Below, piece after piece: positions 51,551 through 62,061 of a stretch of DNA of 64,000 nucleotides. Source of the stretch: a virus; IMG/VR virus record IMGVR_UViG_3300017977_000066, positions 90,897 to 154,896 of that record. One strand, 5' to 3'. The notes below the pieces were generated by a model that was not told the DNA's origin, did not search any database, and worked only from the letters and a program-made list of their open reading frames with translations. The position numbers were made by a program, and so were the translations under genes. Each line of letters begins with the position of its first letter. The stretch's first letter is position 1.

Positions 51551-53263
51551 ATGAACGACGTTCTTCAGAGAGTGTTAGAGAGGACTGATAGGAACAGACC
51601 TAATAAGTGCATATTACAAGGAGACATATCTAGAGAGAATGTAGAGATCTTACCAGAGTATCTATCTAAGGTCATAGAGTCTGCTGTATCTACATTACCA
51701 CCAGAAGCTAACTTTAGATATATGGGCTATAGGAAGCTAACTCCTATAGAGGATTTCTACCACACTATCAATGCTAGTATAAGTAAGAACCTAGTGGATC
51801 TATCTAGGAACTCACTATTTAAGATAGAACTAGGTTTCCAATATGGAGACATAGAGATAAAGAGGATATTATCATTACCTTATGTAGACAAAGGCGGGTT
51901 CTTAAAACTATCTGATGCCAACTATGCACTAGTACCAGTATTATCCTCATACCCAGTAGCACCCTCACCATCTGAGTTATTTATAAGATTACTTAGAGAT
52001 AAGCTTATCATCAAGAAGATGAGAAGAAATGTTTATGTTAATGGAGTTAAGACACCATTAGATGTATACCATAGCAAGACTTATAAGCTTATCAGCAAGG
52101 TTAACAACATCATACCTATAGCTTTATATCCGTTAATAAAATATGGCTTTAAAGATACGTTTAAAGAGCTTATGAATACAGAGCCACTAGTATTATTTGG
52201 AGATGAGGATATAAGTAAGTATCTAGATGAGTATGATGTTTATCAATCATTAGGAGTCAGACCTAGAGCCATACATGTTAATGTTTATATACCACATACT
52301 ATAAGGATACTTGTTAAGAAATCTGAAACTACACCAGCTGTAAGATCTTATATAGGATCATTAATCTATAGCTTCGATATGAGTCCAGAGTTCGCTATGG
52401 AACTTAAGAAGGTTATAGGTAAGAAGAAAGTACATGGTACTGACATCAACCTAGACAACATAGATGAAGAGACCCTATACTGGATAACTCTATTAGGTAA
52501 GATCATATTTAAAAATAAGTATACCTTAGACAGGATACAAATAGACATGTTAGAGCATATTAATATACTTAATAACTATCTAGATAACATCATTAAAGAT
52601 AGGCTTAAAGAGACAGGTATCATACTTGATGACTTCTATAGTTTACTACACTGGTCAGTAGTTAACTTCGATGAGTATGTTAGGATGTATGAGTCCCATA
52701 CTAGTGATCTTGCTAATCGCTATCTAGACATGCCTTACTATGTCTTATATAAACATATAGAAGGAGCTAACAAAGCTTTTCTAGAGCTTAAGAGGAACTT
52801 GGTTAAGAAGACTCTAACTGAGAAGGATATCCATAAGGTATTTAATGATTTCTTAAGTACTAAGAAGATATTCGGTTTAATAAGCTCTAGTGGACTTAAC
52901 CTATCTCTTATACCTATAGATGTCACAGGTGATCAGTTCTATTGGAAAGTAACTTCCATACTAAGTGATCAAGCACAAGGTCAAGGTGTTATCAGAAGCA
53001 AGAGGGAAGCATTCCCCCCTAACACTAGGAAACTTAGAGCTGAAGATCTTATTTTAGGTTCCATGTCTCACTTACCTAAGAAGACTCCATCTCCTAGATT
53101 TAGACTTAATATCAATGCTGATGTTGATCTACATACTGGTAAACTATTACTTACTGAAAAAGATAAGTATTTTATCAACAAGACTGACGCTATGCTTAAT
53201 GCTAAACATGAGGGCGCTGATATAAAAGAGATGACTAACGAGATAGATGTAAAAGATATGTAA
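51551..53263 (+). CDS. RNA polymerase beta-like subunit, N-terminal region (570 aa)
   Basis: Predicted N-terminal half of a phage beta subunit. YRKLTPIEDF lies near residue 57. LPYVDKGGFLKLSDANYALVP follows at about 115-135 and resembles the bacterial pattern ...NGTFVINGTERVVVSQ. Near the end, FPPNTRKLRAEDLILGSMSHLPKKTPS (about 494-520, read in parts) recalls the rif-region segment RDVHPTHYGRMCPIETPEG. The match is by pattern and weaker than for the other polymerase pieces. The class 1 promoter groups it with the intron-containing beta C-terminal gene, suggesting the same enzyme. Confidence 0.6.
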   Translation: MNDVLQRVLERTDRNRPNKCILQGDISRENVEILPEYLSKVIESAVSTLPPEANFRYMGYRKLTPIEDFYHTINASISKNLVDLSRNSLFKIELGFQYGDIEIKRILSLPYVDKGGFLKLSDANYALVPVLSSYPVAPSPSELFIRLLRDKLIIKKMRRNVYVNGVKTPLDVYHSKTYKLISKVNNIIPIALYPLIKYGFKDTFKELMNTEPLVLFGDEDISKYLDEYDVYQSLGVRPRAIHVNVYIPHTIRILVKKSETTPAVRSYIGSLIYSFDMSPEFAMELKKVIGKKKVHGTDINLDNIDEETLYWITLLGKIIFKNKYTLDRIQIDMLEHINILNNYLDNIIKDRLKETGIILDDFYSLLHWSVVNFDEYVRMYESHTSDLANRYLDMPYYVLYKHIEGANKAFLELKRNLVKKTLTEKDIHKVFNDFLSTKKIFGLISSSGLNLSLIPIDVTGDQFYWKVTSILSDQAQGQGVIRSKREAFPPNTRKLRAEDLILGSMSHLPKKTPSPRFRLNINADVDLHTGKLLLTEKDKYFINKTDAMLNAKHEGADIKEMTNEIDVKDM

Positions 53264-53274
53264 AAGTAACTATG

Positions 53275-53310
53275 CCATAGTAACCTTTTGGTTACTATGG
53301 TTAGCTGTTT
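53275..53310. terminator. Bidirectional terminator
   Basis: CCATAGTAACC pairs with GGTTACTATGG (53275-53300), followed by TTAGCTGTTTTT, between convergent genes. Confidence 0.75.
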
Positions 53311-54014
53311 TTGTTTATGAAAGCTTCTATATACACTTTCCTTATATGGAAGTGTTGCACAGGTATGCTTGTAACATCTATATATGGCTTATATAGTTCG
53401 TTAACAGACTGAAGCATAGTCTCTATATCTTTTTCTTTTTTAACACTCAGAGGCTTCATAAGCATCGCTGGTATGTATAGTTTAGTTTCATTAGCCTGAC
53501 CATCCGATAACCCTATATGATATTCTAACCACTCCATGCCATCATACATGATCATGACATTATATTTGTTATCAGCATAGCTTAGAGTTAACTCAGTAGG
53601 TTTTAGATAGATGAACTCTATATTAACAAAATCGCTAAGAACACTTATGAAGATGGCATTGGCTAGTTGGTTCTTCATATGGTCACTTAGAGTATAAGGA
53701 TAAGTATTAACTTCTAATGTTACTACACCAGAGTCATTAGTCTCTATGAGCTTACTTAGTAACATATTAATCTCCACACTAGCAACCTCTAAGACATTAC
53801 TAGCGAATGACTCAGTCAGCTTAGTACTAAGATCTACATGTTTAAAATATGCTAATATATCATTAGAGAGATAGTCATACTCTTCATATACTCTGTTAAT
53901 ATAGTTATCATCACGAACAGCTCGTATAGCTAACTTCTTATCTAATAAAGCTATAGTAGTTAGTCTAGTATCTAAGACATCTCTTAACTCTATATATAAA
54001 GTACTGTTAAGCAT
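53301..54014 (-). CDS. Unknown protein (237 aa)
   Basis: Third gene of a minus-strand operon from 56520, starting nine bases after the stop of the frameshift partner, with AAGGAGGAA upstream. Helical at first (about 110 residues), then beta-rich. Given the neighbours it may be a baseplate or tail assembly protein, but no family is recognised. Confidence 0.55.
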   Translation of the reverse strand: MLNSTLYIELRDVLDTRLTTIALLDKKLAIRAVRDDNYINRVYEEYDYLSNDILAYFKHVDLSTKLTESFASNVLEVASVEINMLLSKLIETNDSGVVTLEVNTYPYTLSDHMKNQLANAIFISVLSDFVNIEFIYLKPTELTLSYADNKYNVMIMYDGMEWLEYHIGLSDGQANETKLYIPAMLMKPLSVKKEKDIETMLQSVNELYKPYIDVTSIPVQHFHIRKVYIEAFINKNS

Positions 54015-54023
54015 GGTTCCTCC

Positions 54024-54587
54024 TTAAAACTTATACAAGTTATTATTATTATTTTCTATCTCAGCTTCTACTAGTGTAGCATCTACATTATCAGTATCAT
54101 TCTTAAGATCTAGATACTCTAACATAAGCATCTGTTCTTTCCTAGTCATATTCATGAACTCTGTATATGAGATACCTGTAGTCTTATAGATATCTAGTCT
54201 GATGAAGTTCTCGAATAGCTCGAATGTATTAGCTATGTTAAATGATTCGAAGTTCTTAGAGTATTTAACTGTATCTAAGTTGTCTATATTACTAACCTTA
54301 TAACCTAGTATAACATTAGTTATTTTTTTATTTAGGATCTCTGCATCCAAGTAGCTACAATGTATTTTTTTAGGTAGCATTTTTTTAACATGCGATAAAT
54401 AGTTCCTGAAGACCTCTAATGGGTTCAAATCCATTAAAGATCTCATTTTTACTAGAACATGGTTCTTAACATCGTATTTATCAAAATGTTCGTGATAGAT
54501 GGAACGGAGCTTTAGATATCTGTCTCGCTCTCTTTTTCCTTTTGGTATCTGTCCATCACTTTCTCGTATCTCGAATGCAGTAGGATA
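54024..54587 (-). CDS. C-terminal frameshift extension of the chaperone-like gene (187 codons in -1 frame)
   Basis: The -1 frame is open from about 54640 down to 54024 and overlaps the end of the 501-residue gene. Its ATG at 54446 (140 residues) has no ribosome site, unlike almost every gene here. In the overlap the -1 frame reads like real protein (FYPTAFEIRESDG, RERDRYLKLRSIYHEHFDKY). Slippage at U7 (54587-54593) would fuse 477 plus 187 residues into about 664. The tail contains TGISYTEFMNM, a pattern common in small tail/hub assembly chaperones. Independent translation from 54446 cannot be fully excluded. Confidence 0.6.
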   Translation of the reverse strand, partial: YPTAFEIRESDGQIPKGKRERDRYLKLRSIYHEHFDKYDVKNHVLVKMRSLMDLNPLEVFRNYLSHVKKMLPKKIHCSYLDAEILNKKITNVILGYKVSNIDNLDTVKYSKNFESFNIANTFELFENFIRLDIYKTTGISYTEFMNMTRKEQMLMLEYLDLKNDTDNVDATLVEAEIENNNNNLYKF

Positions 54588-56017
54588 AAAAAATACTCGA
54601 ACACCGCCAATGGTATAAGCTCGTGTTTAGATTGCGCTATATTACAAGACTCACATCTGAAGTTAGGTATACCTACTATAGATACTAAACTGTTATCTAT
54701 ATAAGCATGGATATCTGCTAAGAACTTAGTTCTAGTGTCATCGTTGCTAACCATGGTATTAAGAGCTTCTTTTATATCTTCTATAGAAGTAAGCTTAGCA
54801 TCGTCTATCTTAATGGATTTTATATAGTGGATATAAAGTTGTAGATAGTAAGATTTAACTAATAGCTCTTCAGCATCTTCTGGTTTATCTACATGAGTAC
54901 TCTCTTTAAGTATCTGATTAGCATTATGTCTAAGAGTACTGATAAAGTCTTTACCAGCTTCTAGATAGTAGCTTATATTAGGAGATTGGAAAGTAACATC
55001 TACTGTTAAAGATTCATCTTCATATGGTAATGTAAACGTCTCTATGACTTCACCGTTAGTAGGTAGTGTTTTCTGATACTCTATAACATCTTCTATAGAT
55101 ACTGTCTTAGGGTTAGTTTTGTTCATCTGCTGGATGTGTTTAGGAGTTAACTTAGTTAAGTCTTCCCACTGTAGTTCATCTAGAGCAAGCTTGACTCTTT
55201 TAACATTATTACAAGCCGGCTTACCATCTTTAAGCTTAGTGTCATTAGAGCACGGGATAACAGCATTAAAACCATTAGGGAATATACTCATAGCTATATT
55301 AATAGCGACTGCATTAACATCATTAATATGGATGTAATCTAGGATGTCTTGATCATCGCCTATATCTAAACTACTAGCTATTATCTTACCTCTAAAATGT
55401 TTGAAGATAACTTCTGTAAATATAACAGAGTAGTTACTAAATATCAGTGTGTTAGTAGCTTTACCTATACGAGTAAGCTCTTCAGTTATCTCTAACTCTA
55501 ATCTTAAGATCTCTTCGTCTGTAAGAGGAGCCATAGTAATATAGAAACCGCTATGCCATAATGCGATATTAACATGGCTACCAAGACCACTAGCTTGTTT
55601 AAGTTTAAGTAGCGCGGCTTTACCAGAAGATACTTTCTTATTAAACTTAAGAGCTTTAGAGTGTAAAGGTTTTTCACCATCTACTTTATTAGTGAAGCTA
55701 ACCATATCTTCACGATAACCAGTATCTTCACTCTCTATAAAACCTTTGTTGTTTCGTTGTAAGATGATGGATACCTGTTCATCTTCAGTTAGATCTTCTA
55801 GCTCTATGTCATCTACAGTGTCTTTGATAGTTTTTCTACTAGCAGATGGAGCTGGTCTAGGCTCTTTAAGTTTAGAAATCTCTTTAGCATCTATAGCCTC
55901 ACCATCATCGAAGACCTCTTCTAACATCTTCTGGTTCTCATCTTGTTCAGGAACCTCTTTAGCAGGAACTTCATTAACTACTTCTTCAGTAGTTTCTACT
56001 TCTTTTTTATCAGACAT
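54512..56017 (-). CDS. Tail/baseplate hub assembly protein, gp26-like, short frameshift form (501 aa)
   Basis: The first 90 residues are Glu/Asp/Pro-rich and likely disordered. The middle is mixed, with VNIALWHSGFYITMAPLTDEEI at about 148-169. The end carries a Cys pair, FRCESCN (about 453-459), followed by hydrophobic VFEYFF. T4 gp26-type hub proteins also end in a Cys-x-x-Cys then aromatic pattern. Slippery heptamer T-TTT-TTT is read in the zero frame at codons 475-477, and the short form stops 24 codons later. The start follows GGAGACATC-type sequence. The functional label is moderate confidence; the gene itself is certain. Confidence 0.6.
   Translation of the reverse strand: MSDKKEVETTEEVVNEVPAKEVPEQDENQKMLEEVFDDGEAIDAKEISKLKEPRPAPSASRKTIKDTVDDIELEDLTEDEQVSIILQRNNKGFIESEDTGYREDMVSFTNKVDGEKPLHSKALKFNKKVSSGKAALLKLKQASGLGSHVNIALWHSGFYITMAPLTDEEILRLELEITEELTRIGKATNTLIFSNYSVIFTEVIFKHFRGKIIASSLDIGDDQDILDYIHINDVNAVAINIAMSIFPNGFNAVIPCSNDTKLKDGKPACNNVKRVKLALDELQWEDLTKLTPKHIQQMNKTNPKTVSIEDVIEYQKTLPTNGEVIETFTLPYEDESLTVDVTFQSPNISYYLEAGKDFISTLRHNANQILKESTHVDKPEDAEELLVKSYYLQLYIHYIKSIKIDDAKLTSIEDIKEALNTMVSNDDTRTKFLADIHAYIDNSLVSIVGIPNFRCESCNIAQSKHELIPLAVFEYFFILLHSRYEKVMDRYQKEKESETDI
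54587..54593 (-). promoter_or_regulatory. Slippery site for -1 ribosomal frameshift
   Basis: U UUU UUU on the minus strand: the zero-frame codons are TAT-TTT-TTT-ATC, so both tRNAs re-pair perfectly after slipping back one base. The -1 frame is open for 187 codons to 54024. Confidence 0.6.
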
Positions 56018-56025
56018 GATGTCTC

Positions 56026-56520
56026 CTATTTTTCTTCAGTAGGCTTTTCAGCTTCTTGTTTAGCAACTTCAGCTCTTATTAAACCTAATAGATGTGTCTC
56101 TATAGACTCGAATGTAGTTTGTATCTTCTCATGTAGGCCACTATAAGCAACTACTACAGTAACATATAGTTGTTGTTGTTTATCATCATTAACATCTACA
56201 TCACCTACATATGCGTTATAGGCAGTACTACCATTTTTTAATTTATTAGACTCACTGTGAGTACCTAAGATATTGATAAGCTCTTGCGAGTAGTCTGTTA
56301 GTGATTTTATAGCACCTACATAAGTAGTAGCGATCTCTCTATTGGACTCTATAATAGATCCAAAAGTCTCACCAGTATTTTTAGTTACATTTAGAGACTG
56401 TTCTAAAAAACCCTTGATTTCATTATACATAGATATAAGCTCATCCCACTTAACAACTTCTTTCTCATTGATAGCAGGAATCTCGATACCAGCTTCTTTA
56501 TTAACTTTATTCTCGGACAT
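56026..56520 (-). CDS. Helical/coiled-coil protein (164 aa)
   Basis: First gene of the minus-strand operon, eight bases before the 501-residue gene. It is almost entirely helical, with a central stretch (about 35-110) rich in Glu, Ser and Leu, and a Glu/Ala/Lys-rich C-terminal tail. It may be an assembly cofactor of the chaperone-like gene that follows. No motif is recognised. The start follows AAGGAAAAAAAC. Confidence 0.6.
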   Translation of the reverse strand: MSENKVNKEAGIEIPAINEKEVVKWDELISMYNEIKGFLEQSLNVTKNTGETFGSIIESNREIATTYVGAIKSLTDYSQELINILGTHSESNKLKNGSTAYNAYVGDVDVNDDKQQQLYVTVVVAYSGLHEKIQTTFESIETHLLGLIRAEVAKQEAEKPTEEK

Positions 56521-56607: not shown

Positions 56608-57522
56608 ATGGATAATGTTTTACTAGGTTATTTACAGAATACTATAAGTAGTGAAAGGGTAGCTACAATAACTTCGCTTTATGATTTACTACATGAGGCA
56701 GCTGTAGATAATACTATAGATCTGATAGATGCCATAGGTGCTAAGGATACTTTAGATGTTGATACTGGTAGTGTTGGTAATGAAGTAGAGTTGCTATTAA
56801 AAGAGGGTTTGATAGCATATTTAAAACATATAGGTATATTAGTAGATGAAGAGGTTCTTGTCTCTACATCTCTTCATAAACTTGTAGCATTTATGGATGC
56901 ACTTAAACATATATCAGAGTTAGATGTAGACCAAGCTGAGTATATCTTAGATAACATAGATGTAGAAGAGACTGACGAAGTAGGGACTTTATTCTTTATA
57001 TTAAGCAATACTGATAATACTTTAGATGCAGAGTTATATTTTAATCTTGTTACTGATGTAGTACCTACTACTTTAAAAGTATTATTGCTAGCTATTAATA
57101 CTATAGTAGAAACCATAGGTGTAGAAGATGAAGATGATGTACAACCTGATGCTAAAGTATTAGACATGCTTCATGAGGAGTTAGAGTTAAGTGTTATGCC
57201 TGATCTATTAAATGACATCATAGGTGATAGAGTTAATACAATATCTAGGATAGGAAATAACTTCACTGATATGAGGTCTAGTATATTTAAGAAACTTAAC
57301 TTCTTCGCTAAAGAGCTAGGGTTCGAAAAGAGAGTTGTAAATAAATACATAGTAGACCTAGTCTTATTATATGCATTCAGTAATAATACCTATAATGATC
57401 TGGTACTAGACCTATATGATAAGTGTAGTGACAAGCATGATTTTAGAGGTGTTATTAATAAAACCATAGCATTGTTTATAGAGTTAGGTATTATAGAGAA
57501 TAAAGGTGATATAGATGAATAA
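56608..57522 (+). CDS. Unknown acidic protein upstream of the beta'-like gene (304 aa)
   Basis: Acidic, with a high content of Asp, Leu, Val and Ile, mostly helical. A basic segment lies near residues 205-240. It overlaps the following beta'-like gene by eight bases, so the two are translated together. It could be a virion polymerase partner or a structural protein; no motif decides this. Confidence 0.6.
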   Translation: MDNVLLGYLQNTISSERVATITSLYDLLHEAAVDNTIDLIDAIGAKDTLDVDTGSVGNEVELLLKEGLIAYLKHIGILVDEEVLVSTSLHKLVAFMDALKHISELDVDQAEYILDNIDVEETDEVGTLFFILSNTDNTLDAELYFNLVTDVVPTTLKVLLLAINTIVETIGVEDEDDVQPDAKVLDMLHEELELSVMPDLLNDIIGDRVNTISRIGNNFTDMRSSIFKKLNFFAKELGFEKRVVNKYIVDLVLLYAFSNNTYNDLVLDLYDKCSDKHDFRGVINKTIALFIELGIIENKGDIDE

Positions 57523-58798
57523 TTTTAATATTAAAGAGTTCCTAAGATATAGTTTTAAAAACAACTTACCTACAGAACTAAATTGGGTTATAGGGTTATT
57601 TGCTACTATGGCTGAATCTGATTTTGAGAACAAGTTCTTTATTATAAAAAATAAAGAGTTCTACGGTAAGACTGATGATGGTGAGTTATTATTAGTTAAA
57701 AACTACACCAAACCAGTATTATTAGCTAGTGATACTATAGATGTGGAGAAAGGTTTTATCTGTAACATAGATAATAATATAACTACTACATATGGTAGAC
57801 TAGTTATGAACTACCTTATAGGATGCCATGCTTTTAATGGTAAGATAAATTTTATCAATGAGAAGTTCACTATTAAAGACATAGAGAAGAAGTATGTTAC
57901 TAAATCACTTACTGATGATGCCAATGATACAAATGGTATATCTGTAGATGAGTTCAAAGAGTTTCTAGATGTGGGTCTATATATAGAGAGCTTCAGTAAG
58001 TATCTAAGCATAGCTATAACTGAGAAATCAGCTCTGCCTCCTAAAGGTCTAGATAAGTTTAAAAAAGATACTCTTAAACTCATGAAAGATAAGTATGGAG
58101 AAGATTTTGCTAAGAACCCCATAGCTATAGCTGAACTAGAGAAACTTATGTTAGACTTTGATGACGACTACCTTAAAGATGATCCAGCCTATGGTAAGCT
58201 CATGTCTGGTAAAGTCACTAACATGGCTAGGAAGAAGATGTTCCTATTATTTGGTATAGGTAATAGTTTTGAAGAAGCTCCTGATGGTATATTAGATTCT
58301 TTACAAGAGGGCTGGGACCTAGACCCTAAGAAACTTACCGCATATGCTAATGATAGTAGAAGTGGTTCTTATGGTCGTGGTAAAGAGACTAGTCAGGGTG
58401 GTGTTATGGCTAAGGTTTCATTAAGAGCTACATCTGACATTAAGATAGAGAAAACAGATTGTGGTACCAAGATGGGTAGACCAGTTCGTATAACTGCTGA
58501 GAATTATAATAGGTATATAAAACGTTATATGATAGGAGTCAATGGTAAACCTGAACCTCTTACTGAAGATAAGTTAAAGTCTCTTGTAAATAAAATCATC
58601 TATCTAAGGACTCCACTGTACTGTCATCTAGATACTAACTACTGTAGTACTTGTGCTGGTGAAAACATAAGTGATTATGAGAATGGGGTTTCATTACTAG
58701 TATCAGGTGCTAGTGGTAAAGTACTCGATATCTCTTTAAAAGCTTTCCATGGTAATAGCTTAACCATCGGTACATTAGACCTTAGTACCATACATTAA
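57515..58798 (+). CDS. RNA polymerase beta'-like subunit of the second polymerase, C-terminal region (427 aa)
   Basis: RARKKM-like lead-in (MARKKMFLLFGIGNSFEE, about 235-252) precedes a trigger-loop-like segment. This contains ANDSRSGSYGRGKETSQGG and VSLRATSDIKIEKTDCGT, the latter equal to bacterial ...VTEDDCGT. Near the end, YCSTCAGE is a Cys pair and SGASGKVLDISLKAFHG corresponds to the QSIGEPGTQLTMRTFH segment. The sequence differs clearly from the beta' piece at 36774, so it belongs to another enzyme. The class 2 signal upstream and coupling to an acidic protein suggest late expression, as expected for a packaged (virion) polymerase. Confidence 0.78.
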   Translation: MNNFNIKEFLRYSFKNNLPTELNWVIGLFATMAESDFENKFFIIKNKEFYGKTDDGELLLVKNYTKPVLLASDTIDVEKGFICNIDNNITTTYGRLVMNYLIGCHAFNGKINFINEKFTIKDIEKKYVTKSLTDDANDTNGISVDEFKEFLDVGLYIESFSKYLSIAITEKSALPPKGLDKFKKDTLKLMKDKYGEDFAKNPIAIAELEKLMLDFDDDYLKDDPAYGKLMSGKVTNMARKKMFLLFGIGNSFEEAPDGILDSLQEGWDLDPKKLTAYANDSRSGSYGRGKETSQGGVMAKVSLRATSDIKIEKTDCGTKMGRPVRITAENYNRYIKRYMIGVNGKPEPLTEDKLKSLVNKIIYLRTPLYCHLDTNYCSTCAGENISDYENGVSLLVSGASGKVLDISLKAFHGNSLTIGTLDLSTIH

Positions 58799-60366: not shown

Positions 60367-60411
60367 ATAAGAAGAACCATAATAGGTTCTTCTTATCATT
60401 CTTTTTTTTTA
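60367..60411. terminator. Bidirectional terminator
   Basis: ATAAGAAGAACC pairs with GGTTCTTCTTAT (60367-60396), followed by CTTTTTTTTT, between the small gene and the DNA polymerase half. Confidence 0.8.
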
Positions 60412-62061
60412 TTTTACATTTTCTATAAGTTCATATAAGCTAGGCATATTGAACATATGTGTACAATACTCGATAGCATTAGTTCTACCATAACTAATGT
60501 CTATATTAAACTTCTTAAAAGAGTCCTTATCAAGATCCCCTATCTTATATATCTCTCTATGAGTAGTTGCTGTAGATATATTAGCAGCCGCTGTAGCACT
60601 AGGATATGCGGATGTAATATCTAAGTCATATATAAGAGTTCTTATGTTAGTATTTATGTTGGTAAGTTCGCCATCTACTTTTATATATTTATTTTTACTA
60701 TCTTCTATATAATGGCTTATAAGAGTTATAACCCAACCATCTAATCCTAGTATCTTATCATTCTCATTAGAGTAAGCTTTAACGCCTAAGACTTTCTTAT
60801 GTTCCAGGTAGAATATAAACATAGCGTCTACGATCTTACGAGGACCTGAGTTAAATACATCACTATGACTGATGCCTGATAATAAAGGCAATGAGATGGA
60901 TAGATCGTTGGTCTTCATCTCCATAGCGAATAGTGACATAACATCCCATATATTATAGATAATATATTCTAATGGTTTACTCTTAACCATCATGATATGC
61001 CACTCTAGCCCTCTGTATTTTTCATCTACAGTATCATCGAATTTTAGCTTACCACTGATGCCTTCTTTTTTTAAGATATTATCTAGACTATAACCACCTG
61101 GTGTAGTAGCGGTACCAACCCTTATGAATCTATGAGCTGCCATAGCATCCAATATGGTATAGTTAGCAGTACACTTAATGGTGTTCCAGATATCTTCTGG
61201 ACTTAGACTCATCTCTCTACCAGCTTCAGTTATCTTCTTAGCTCTCCCCTCTCTAAATTCAAAATACTTATACTCTTCTGGTATCTCATCATAGTGAAAT
61301 ATGGAAGCAGGATCTACTTGTCTCTCTTGTAGCTTATCTAAGATCTCTGTTATATCATACTTAACATTCCATGCTGCTAATGTATCTATATCCGAGTAGT
61401 TAGCTGTTTGGAATATGAATCTTATCATATCTATCTCATCATCGAAGAACTTAAGTTCTAACTTAACATTGTTCTTGAGTGACTCTCCATCATCAGGTAC
61501 ATATCTAGTATAGAGTTCTTGTAGTCTATCCTTATTAAGCTTAGTATCATCTACGAAGCTTTTTAAGATAGCTGTTACAACTTTACCTTTAGTGATAAGA
61601 GAGATAAGTATGATATCATTCTTTAAGGTATCTACTTCTATATCGAAGAACCCTATCCTATCTGGAGATGGATCTCTGTTTAGTTTTTTATTATAGACAT
61701 GCTTCAAGATGGTTCTAGAGTCAGTATCTAGTCCATATACATATGGAGACTCTTTTATCCGTCTTGGATCTGTTATACCTATATACCTAGAGCCTAGTCT
61801 TCTAGATACACTCTTATAAAGAGAGCTCTGAGTAGAAGTGAACATATCTACTCTATTTAAGTCTTCATACTCTAGCTTATCTATATATTTCTGATAGATA
61901 GGTTTGGTAACCCAGAAGGGCCTTTTAAAGTCTTTTATAACTCTGATGTTATCCTCATAAACACCATCTTTATATTTTACTTCTTTTACTATATGAATAT
62001 CATCCCCTACCTCTCTAAATGAGAAGTAATTCACTATCTTAGCTTCTACTTGTTCTCCCAT
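60409..62061 (-). CDS. DNA polymerase family B, N-terminal half (exonuclease domain and motif A) (550 aa)
   Basis: Proofreading 3'-5' exonuclease motifs are complete: Exo I DIE at 140-142, Exo II N232-V-K-Y-D236 and Exo III Y369-N-I-W-D373. Polymerase motif A follows as D-L-D-I-T-S-A-Y-P-S at 479-488. The protein ends 62 residues later; motifs B and C are missing but occur in the gene at 1289-3469 on the other strand. Together they form a complete polymerase in two polypeptides. The start follows AAGGAGCAGT. The gene ends at a strong terminator, so no frameshift or intron can join it to anything downstream. Confidence 0.88.
   Translation of the reverse strand: MGEQVEAKIVNYFSFREVGDDIHIVKEVKYKDGVYEDNIRVIKDFKRPFWVTKPIYQKYIDKLEYEDLNRVDMFTSTQSSLYKSVSRRLGSRYIGITDPRRIKESPYVYGLDTDSRTILKHVYNKKLNRDPSPDRIGFFDIEVDTLKNDIILISLITKGKVVTAILKSFVDDTKLNKDRLQELYTRYVPDDGESLKNNVKLELKFFDDEIDMIRFIFQTANYSDIDTLAAWNVKYDITEILDKLQERQVDPASIFHYDEIPEEYKYFEFREGRAKKITEAGREMSLSPEDIWNTIKCTANYTILDAMAAHRFIRVGTATTPGGYSLDNILKKEGISGKLKFDDTVDEKYRGLEWHIMMVKSKPLEYIIYNIWDVMSLFAMEMKTNDLSISLPLLSGISHSDVFNSGPRKIVDAMFIFYLEHKKVLGVKAYSNENDKILGLDGWVITLISHYIEDSKNKYIKVDGELTNINTNIRTLIYDLDITSAYPSATAAANISTATTHREIYKIGDLDKDSFKKFNIDISYGRTNAIEYCTHMFNMPSLYELIENVK

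What the first reader, a model, noticed from the sequence alone, without database searches (positions are those of the whole stretch)
54587..54593. Probable programmed -1 frameshift at a U7 heptamer in a chaperone-like operon
On the minus strand the zero frame reads TAT TTT TTT ATC, a perfect slippery heptamer. The -1 frame is open from about 54640 to 54024 and reads as protein throughout the overlap. The inner ATG at 54446 has no ribosome site. Long and short forms (about 664 and 501 residues) would result, as in tail assembly chaperone genes of many phages, but the short form is unusually large for that role.
Basis: partly seen in the sequence, partly recalled or inferred. Interest (0 to 1): 0.7.

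Follow-up and report, generated by a model that had tools for sequence, protein, structure and literature searches.

The report
Frameshifted tail-assembly gene in giant phages
A giant phage makes a short and a long version of one protein, which looks like a tail-building chaperone, by letting ribosomes slip back one base at a run of seven T; the same slip site is kept in nearly all relatives examined, where databases list the two halves as separate unknown genes.

Summary
The minus-strand gene at 56017-54512 (501 aa) carries an in-frame T_TTT_TTT heptamer at 54593-54587. The -1 frame is open from 54626 and gives a 187-aa extension (664-aa fusion). The gene is the phiKZ gp077 family (phrog_4585). 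In 28/28 jumbo phages (27 named, plus the window) the same Phe-Phe is N_TTT_TTY with the -1 frame open across it. The first Phe codon is TTT 28/28 times, against 9.2 expected. In IMG/VR, 73 of 78 complete loci have the heptamer, five have a T5 variant, and all 78 keep the extension in the -1 frame. The extension is under purifying selection, before any ATG too, and the -1 frame almost never has a ribosome-binding site. A profile made without the window finds the window's -1 ORF as its only hit (E 7e-12). Sequencing error, pseudogene and a separate gene are thus very unlikely. The 0-frame protein folds like T4-type gp26/gp51 hub-assembly proteins, and the slip site sits where gp26 ends. Best reading: a tail assembly chaperone whose short and long forms come from -1 frameshifting. 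No stimulator was found; ratio and function are untested. Frameshifted chaperones are a known kind. No report for phiKZ-like phages was found, but Vladimirov 2022 could not be read.

The parts
54512..56017 (-). 0-frame gene, short product (TAC-N-like), 501 aa; homolog of phiKZ gp077 / phrog_4585
   Evidence: (phrog_4585 E 2.8e-68)
56023..56027 (-). Shine-Dalgarno AGGAG of the 0-frame gene
54644..54655 (-). CESC motif (Cys455/Cys458), the CxxC preceding the slip site; aligns with CPECGK near the C-terminus of T4 gp26
54587..54593 (-). slippery heptamer T_TTT_TTT; slip -1, next codon TAT starts at 54587
54512..54586 (-). 0-frame tail of the short product (ILLHSRYEKVMDRYQKEKESETDI stop)
54024..54587 (-). 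-1 frame extension, 187 aa (YPTAFEIRESDGQ...NNLYKF stop), all-helical AlphaFold model, mean pLDDT 84.6
54024..54446 (-). 140-aa ORF from the inner ATG, as a gene finder would call it; no ribosome-binding site, and the ATG is not conserved in the nearest relative L142
56026..56520 (-). upstream gene of the same operon, 164 aa, in the position of phiKZ gp078
   Evidence: gene order
53301..54014 (-). downstream gene, 237 aa, phrog_3328, own ribosome site (ggagg); not a tape measure protein by size

Best explanation
This is the phiKZ-family (gp077-type) tail assembly chaperone gene, expressed as two products by programmed -1 ribosomal frameshifting. Most ribosomes read through U_UUU_UUU and stop 24 codons later, giving the 501-aa short form. 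A fraction slips back one base on the tandem Phe codons and continues in the -1 frame, giving a 664-aa form with an added helical 187-aa domain. By analogy with lambda gpG/gpGT and T4 gp26/gp51, the short form would coat the tape measure protein, and the few long copies would recruit tail tube subunits through the extension. Strongly supported by comparison: the slip site, the -1 continuation and its coding selection. Inferred from fold: the T4 gp26/gp51-like chaperone class. Not tested: slip ratio, partners and absence from the virion.
For: N_TTT_TTY in register at the conserved Phe-Phe in 28/28 phages (27 named plus the window), with the -1 frame open across it. Among 79 distinct IMG/VR loci, 73 have the heptamer, 5 have a CTT/GTT_TTT variant and 1 is truncated; the extension profile hits the -1 frame in all 78 complete loci. 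First Phe codon TTT in 28/28 against 9.2 expected from each gene's own Phe usage; FLC8 uses TTT 0/17 times elsewhere. Where estimable, dN/dS of the extension is 0.06-0.45, and 0-0.35 between the 0-frame stop and the first Met. 0-frame starts have SD-like sites in 28/28, whereas -1 frame starts with SD of four or more occur in only 2/28. The leave-one-out profile gives the window -1 ORF as its only hit, E 6.6e-12. Fold: Rhizobium AF3 baseplate hub subunit (prob 0.99), T4-like hub assembly protein (prob 1.00), tape measure chaperones (prob 0.63-0.75). C-terminus versus T4 gp26 C-terminus: profile score 26.5, null maximum 17.2, aligning FF[I/T]L with FFEL, the end of gp26.
Against: No conserved downstream RNA structure: mean z -0.41 at the site versus -0.43 in control stretches; window z -0.76. 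No upstream SD stimulator (4/92, background level). The gene is not next to a tape measure gene. No Pfam hit to PF12322. The extension shows no detectable similarity to the gp51 tail. The Foldseek matches to named hub and chaperone proteins have E about 1e-3 to 1. No solved structure and no proteomics at hand. In the five T5 variants the heptamer is not canonical.
Confidence: 0.85

Rival explanations
1. Two separate genes: the -1 ORF is translated on its own from an inner start (54446 in the window), as databases annotate it in the relatives.
For: Inner ATG at 54446; separate CDS annotated in the annotated relatives.
Against: No ribosome-binding site at inner starts in 26/28. First Met of the extension lies anywhere from residue 18 to 139 and is not shared by the nearest relative L142. 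The region before any Met is conserved as protein.
Confidence: 0.04
2. Transcriptional slippage at the T run makes mRNAs lacking one U, so the frame change happens in RNA, not on the ribosome.
For: T7 in 49/92 and T6 or more in most others; phage-encoded RNA polymerases have unknown slippage behaviour.
Against: Several sites have runs of only five T (PS119XW A_TTTTT_C, Noxifer G_TTTTT_C, L138, L157), short for known transcriptional slippage (general knowledge). Register to the reading frame is strictly kept.
Confidence: 0.06
3. Sequencing error or recent pseudogene: the true sequence has another number of T and one continuous ORF.
For: Homopolymer errors are common in metagenome assemblies.
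Against: Same break at the same site in 27/27 named phages and all 78 complete IMG/VR loci, including finished isolate genomes such as phiKZ. Both halves are under purifying selection.
Confidence: 0.005
4. Frameshifting is real, but the products are structural baseplate hub parts, not transient chaperones.
For: Closest named folds are called baseplate hub; T4 gp26 has sometimes been placed in the hub (PMC3004832).
Against: PMC3004832 tabulates gp26 and gp51 as hub assembly chaperones and says gp51 is not in the final particle. A short/long pair from one gene is the typical chaperone arrangement (PMC5009743). No solved structure contains phiKZ gp077.
Confidence: 0.15

Closest known systems
Lambda gpG/gpGT-type tail assembly chaperones with -1 frameshift (Xu, Hendrix and Duda 2004; reviewed in PMC5009743)
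   Same: Short and long product from one gene, -1 slip near the 3' end, extension in the overlapping -1 ORF often annotated as a separate gene.
   Different: Short form about 480-670 aa here against about 140 aa for lambda gpG (general knowledge); U-rich slippery site; not beside a tape measure gene; no sequence match found.
T4 gp26 and gp51 (PF12322; T4 chaperone genes identified by Vladimirov et al. 2022, Virology 566:9, title only seen)
   Same: Related fold of the 0-frame protein; CxxC followed by FFxL at the end of gp26, which coincides with the slip site; in T4 the shorter (gp26) and longer (gp51) proteins share one domain.
   Different: T4 uses two genes on opposite strands; gene 26 ends TTC TTT with no -1 ORF. 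phiKZ-type uses one gene plus a frameshift. No PF12322 hit for gp077-type proteins. The extensions are not detectably related.
Chaperone gene with GTTTTT slip site in Vandenendeviridae and Andersonviridae (PMC12846349)
   Same: Poly-T slippery site near the 3' end, -1 extension lost from annotations, conserved over divergent genomes.
   Different: Different phage families; adjacent to the tape measure gene there. Here the motif is mostly T_TTT_TTY and the gene is not beside a tape measure gene.

Membership tests
[quoted passage not shown]
   T_TTT_TTT at 54593-54587; 27/27 named and 73/78 complete IMG/VR relatives
Tail assembly chaperone gene with -1 frameshift (G/GT type) | Overlapping -1 ORF extending the protein, under coding selection, no own start | tested here: met
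Tail assembly chaperone gene with -1 frameshift (G/GT type) | Gene lies directly upstream of the tape measure gene | tested here: not met
   Next gene is 237 aa, phrog_3328; relatives have small hypothetical or opposite-strand genes there
Tail assembly chaperone gene with -1 frameshift (G/GT type) | Fold of known tail assembly chaperones | tested here: inconclusive
   Foldseek: tape measure chaperone Scapp prob 0.63-0.75, chaperone K1H prob 0.38; stronger to T4-like hub assembly proteins
Tail assembly chaperone gene with -1 frameshift (G/GT type) | Binds tape measure and tail tube proteins, absent from virion, fixed short:long ratio | not testable with these tools
   needs experiment
T4 gp26/gp51 family (PF12322) | Match to the Pfam model | tested here: not met
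   no hit for window, DT01 or FLC9 proteins; T4 gp26 and gp51 both match
T4 gp26/gp51 family (PF12322) | Shared fold | tested here: met
   Foldseek prob 0.99-1.00 to Rhizobium AF3 hub subunit and a T4-like hub assembly protein, though E only 1.7e-3 to 8e-3 and TM-score over target 0.43-0.49
T4 gp26/gp51 family (PF12322) | C-terminal CxxC followed by FFxL at the end of the short form | tested here: met
   profile score 26.5, 0 of 100 permutations reach it, null maximum 17.2
T4 gp26/gp51 family (PF12322) | Long form has a gp51-like C-terminal tail | tested here: not met
   93 of 100 permutations score as high

The most novel reading that the evidence does not exclude
The single frameshifted gene of phiKZ-like jumbo phages and the two-gene gp26/gp51 pair of T4 descend from one gene: an ancestral chaperone made its long form by slipping at Phe-Phe, and the T4 lineage replaced the slip with a gene duplication, so gp26 ends exactly where the slip used to be.
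Probability: 0.35. Interest if true: 0.65.

Novelty: new member of a known kind. Interest (0 to 1): 0.5.

Why it matters
phiKZ-like jumbo phages (including nucleus-forming ones) are heavily studied and tried in therapy, yet I found no tail assembly chaperone named for them in the literature held. This finding would name one, and would correct two wrong gene calls (a truncated protein plus an orphan) in the annotated phage genomes examined and probably in most of the 208 phage records that match gp077. It gives a family-wide slip site that seems to work without a recognisable stimulator, in phages that grow on laboratory strains, so the short:long ratio can be measured directly. It also offers a testable link between the frameshifted chaperones of most tailed phages and the exceptional two-gene arrangement in T4.

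Tried and rejected
Direct profile comparison of full-length gp077-type alignments with T4 gp26 or gp51 was not significant; only the C-terminal part stood out against permutations. Similarity of the -1 extension to the gp51 tail looked good by eye but failed the permutation test (93/100) and is not claimed. A downstream hairpin or upstream SD as stimulator: individual sites fold well (for example D6, Psa21), but over 92 sites there is no excess over control stretches. A slip site in T4 gene 26 was looked for: it ends GAG TTC TTT GAG with the -1 frame closed just after. Searching viral contigs with the window protein alone found nothing, and the first broad alignment had no conserved stretch; narrower alignments worked. 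tblastn of the window extension alone finds no phage; only profiles do. Pfam gives nothing for either half. The literature searches found no report for phiKZ-like phages; the key T4 paper (Vladimirov 2022) is not held.

Full report
Observation. On the minus strand the gene at 56017-54512 (501 aa) has the codons GAG TAT TTT TTT ATC, with seven T at 54593-54587. The -1 frame is open from 54626 to the stop at 54024, so a one-base backward slip would add 187 residues and give a 664-aa protein. The inner ATG at 54446 has no ribosome site, while the gene start at 56017 has AGGAG. T7 runs by themselves are frequent in this AT-rich window (59 against 16 expected), so the case rests on comparison.

What the gene is. 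The 0-frame protein belongs to phrog_4585 (E 2.8e-68) and is a distant homolog (about 22-27% identity) of phiKZ gp077 and its relatives; 145 to 208 phage records match members of the family. The window is the end of a 154,896-base IMG/VR record. In most of the named phages fetched the gene order is the same: opposite-strand genes (annotated as RNA polymerase, head protein or hypothetical), a small gene, the gp077 homolog, then a short orphan ORF. None of the annotated records joins gp077 with the orphan.

The frameshift. In 28 of 28 phages (27 named ones plus the window), with hosts from Pseudomonas, Erwinia, Salmonella, Klebsiella, Serratia, Vibrio, Burkholderia, Xanthomonas, Aeromonas, Proteus and E. 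coli, the conserved Phe-Phe near the C-terminus is coded N_TTT_TTY and the -1 frame is open across it and for 371-491 bases beyond the 0-frame stop. In IMG/VR, 79 distinct loci were found. Of these, 73 have the heptamer, one is cut off, and five have CTT or GTT followed by TTT and a non-Phe codon, so that only a single-tRNA slip is possible. In all 78 complete loci the extension profile hits the -1 frame and never the 0 frame. The first Phe codon is TTT in 28/28 against 9.2 expected from each gene's own Phe usage (nominal log10 P -15.7, assuming independence); FLC8 uses TTT in none of its other 17 Phe codons. The heptamer tally over 92 distinct sites is T_TTT_TTT 49, T_TTT_TTC 23, G_TTT_TTT 10, A_TTT_TTT 6, G_TTT_TTC 3, A_TTT_TTC 1.

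The -1 frame is translated as part of the upstream protein. Its dN/dS is 0.06-0.45 over the pairs of relatives where it could be estimated, and 0-0.35 in the stretch between the 0-frame stop and the first Met (simple counting method, some dS values saturated). Starts with a Shine-Dalgarno match of four or more occur in the -1 frame in only 2 of 28, while all 28 gene starts have one of at least three. The first Met in the extension lies anywhere from residue 18 to 139. The nearest relative, L142, keeps the site TATTTTTTTATCCTACTGCATTC and a 187-aa extension but not the inner ATG. A profile built without the window, L142 and L140 finds the window's -1 ORF as its only hit among all window ORFs (E 6.6e-12).

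Stimulators. No downstream structure is enriched (mean z -0.41 at the site versus -0.43 in control stretches of the same genes), and SD-like sequences upstream are at background (4/92). The window's own downstream fold is unremarkable (z -0.76). The slip is probably of modest efficiency and driven by the U tract; the ratio is unknown.

Function. AlphaFold models are good for the 0-frame protein (mean pLDDT 81.8, pTM 0.81) and fair for the extension (84.6, pTM 0.60, all helical). Against viral structures the 0-frame model first hits its own family and then proteins annotated as T4-like baseplate hub or hub assembly: Rhizobium phage AF3 (prob 0.99, E 1.7e-3) and a T4-like hub assembly protein (prob 1.00, E 8e-3), together with an unnamed Campylobacter phage F361 protein (prob 1.00). 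Tape measure chaperones of phage Scapp follow at prob 0.63-0.75. Nothing solved matches. T4 gp26 and gp51 both match PF12322 over their shared domain, gp51 having about 48 extra residues at the end. The C-terminus of gp077-type proteins aligns with that of gp26 (score 26.5, best of 100 permutations 17.2), putting FF[I/T]L on FFELL, the last residues of gp26. So the slip site sits where the T4 short form simply ends. PMC3004832 tabulates gp26 and gp51 as hub assembly chaperones, and Vladimirov et al. 2022 (title seen in PMC10885494; paper not held) assign the T4 tail assembly chaperones and say a mechanism other than frameshifting is used. Together this makes a tail assembly chaperone the most likely role, by analogy with gpG/gpGT (PMC5009743), but this step is inferred.

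Relation to the known. Frameshifted tail assembly chaperones are a well known kind, and a poly-T version was recently described in Vandenendeviridae and Andersonviridae (PMC12846349). I found no report for phiKZ-like phages in the library held. Membership in PF12322 is not claimed: the Pfam model does not hit and the extension is not like the gp51 tail. The gene is not next to a tape measure gene, unlike the classical arrangement. I file it as a new member of a known kind, unusual in the size of its short form (about 480-670 aa in the family) and in spanning a whole group of jumbo phages.

Limits. All evidence is comparative. Relatives are not independent, so the codon probability is nominal. 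The function rests on fold similarity with modest E-values and on analogy. The 664-aa fusion itself was not modelled.

Noticed in passing
L138, L139, L157, L159, L160 near the end of the gp077-type ORF: Slip site reduced to CTT_TTT_A or GTT_TTT_(A/T), yet the extension stays in the -1 frame; would need a single-tRNA slip on U_UUU. A natural test of what the site minimally needs.
   Followed up: partly
L029 4303-5729 (T4 genes 26 and 51): T4 gp26 and gp51 share the same Pfam domain (PF12322) and are divergent neighbours; gp51 is gp26-like plus a C-terminal tail, consistent with a short/long pair made by gene duplication.
   Followed up: yes
window 60409-62061 (-): 550-aa ORF with a DLDITSAYPS motif like family B DNA polymerase motif A, ending soon after it; no PF00136 match anywhere in the record. 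Possibly a split or very divergent polymerase.
   Followed up: partly
window 57515-58798 (+) and 51551-53263 (+): Likely pieces of phage-encoded RNA polymerase (the second hits phrog_2943 'polymerase'; the first was judged by eye from its Cys motif and position); Pfam recognises neither.
   Followed up: no
window, both strands: T7 runs are 3.6 times more frequent than dinucleotide shuffles predict (59 versus 16), several of them at gene ends or between genes.
   Followed up: no
L015 2601-3149 (Simmy50 gp271): Annotators extended the downstream ORF upstream into gp272 (overlapping CDS), the only annotation seen that covers the -1 frame across the slip site.
   Followed up: no
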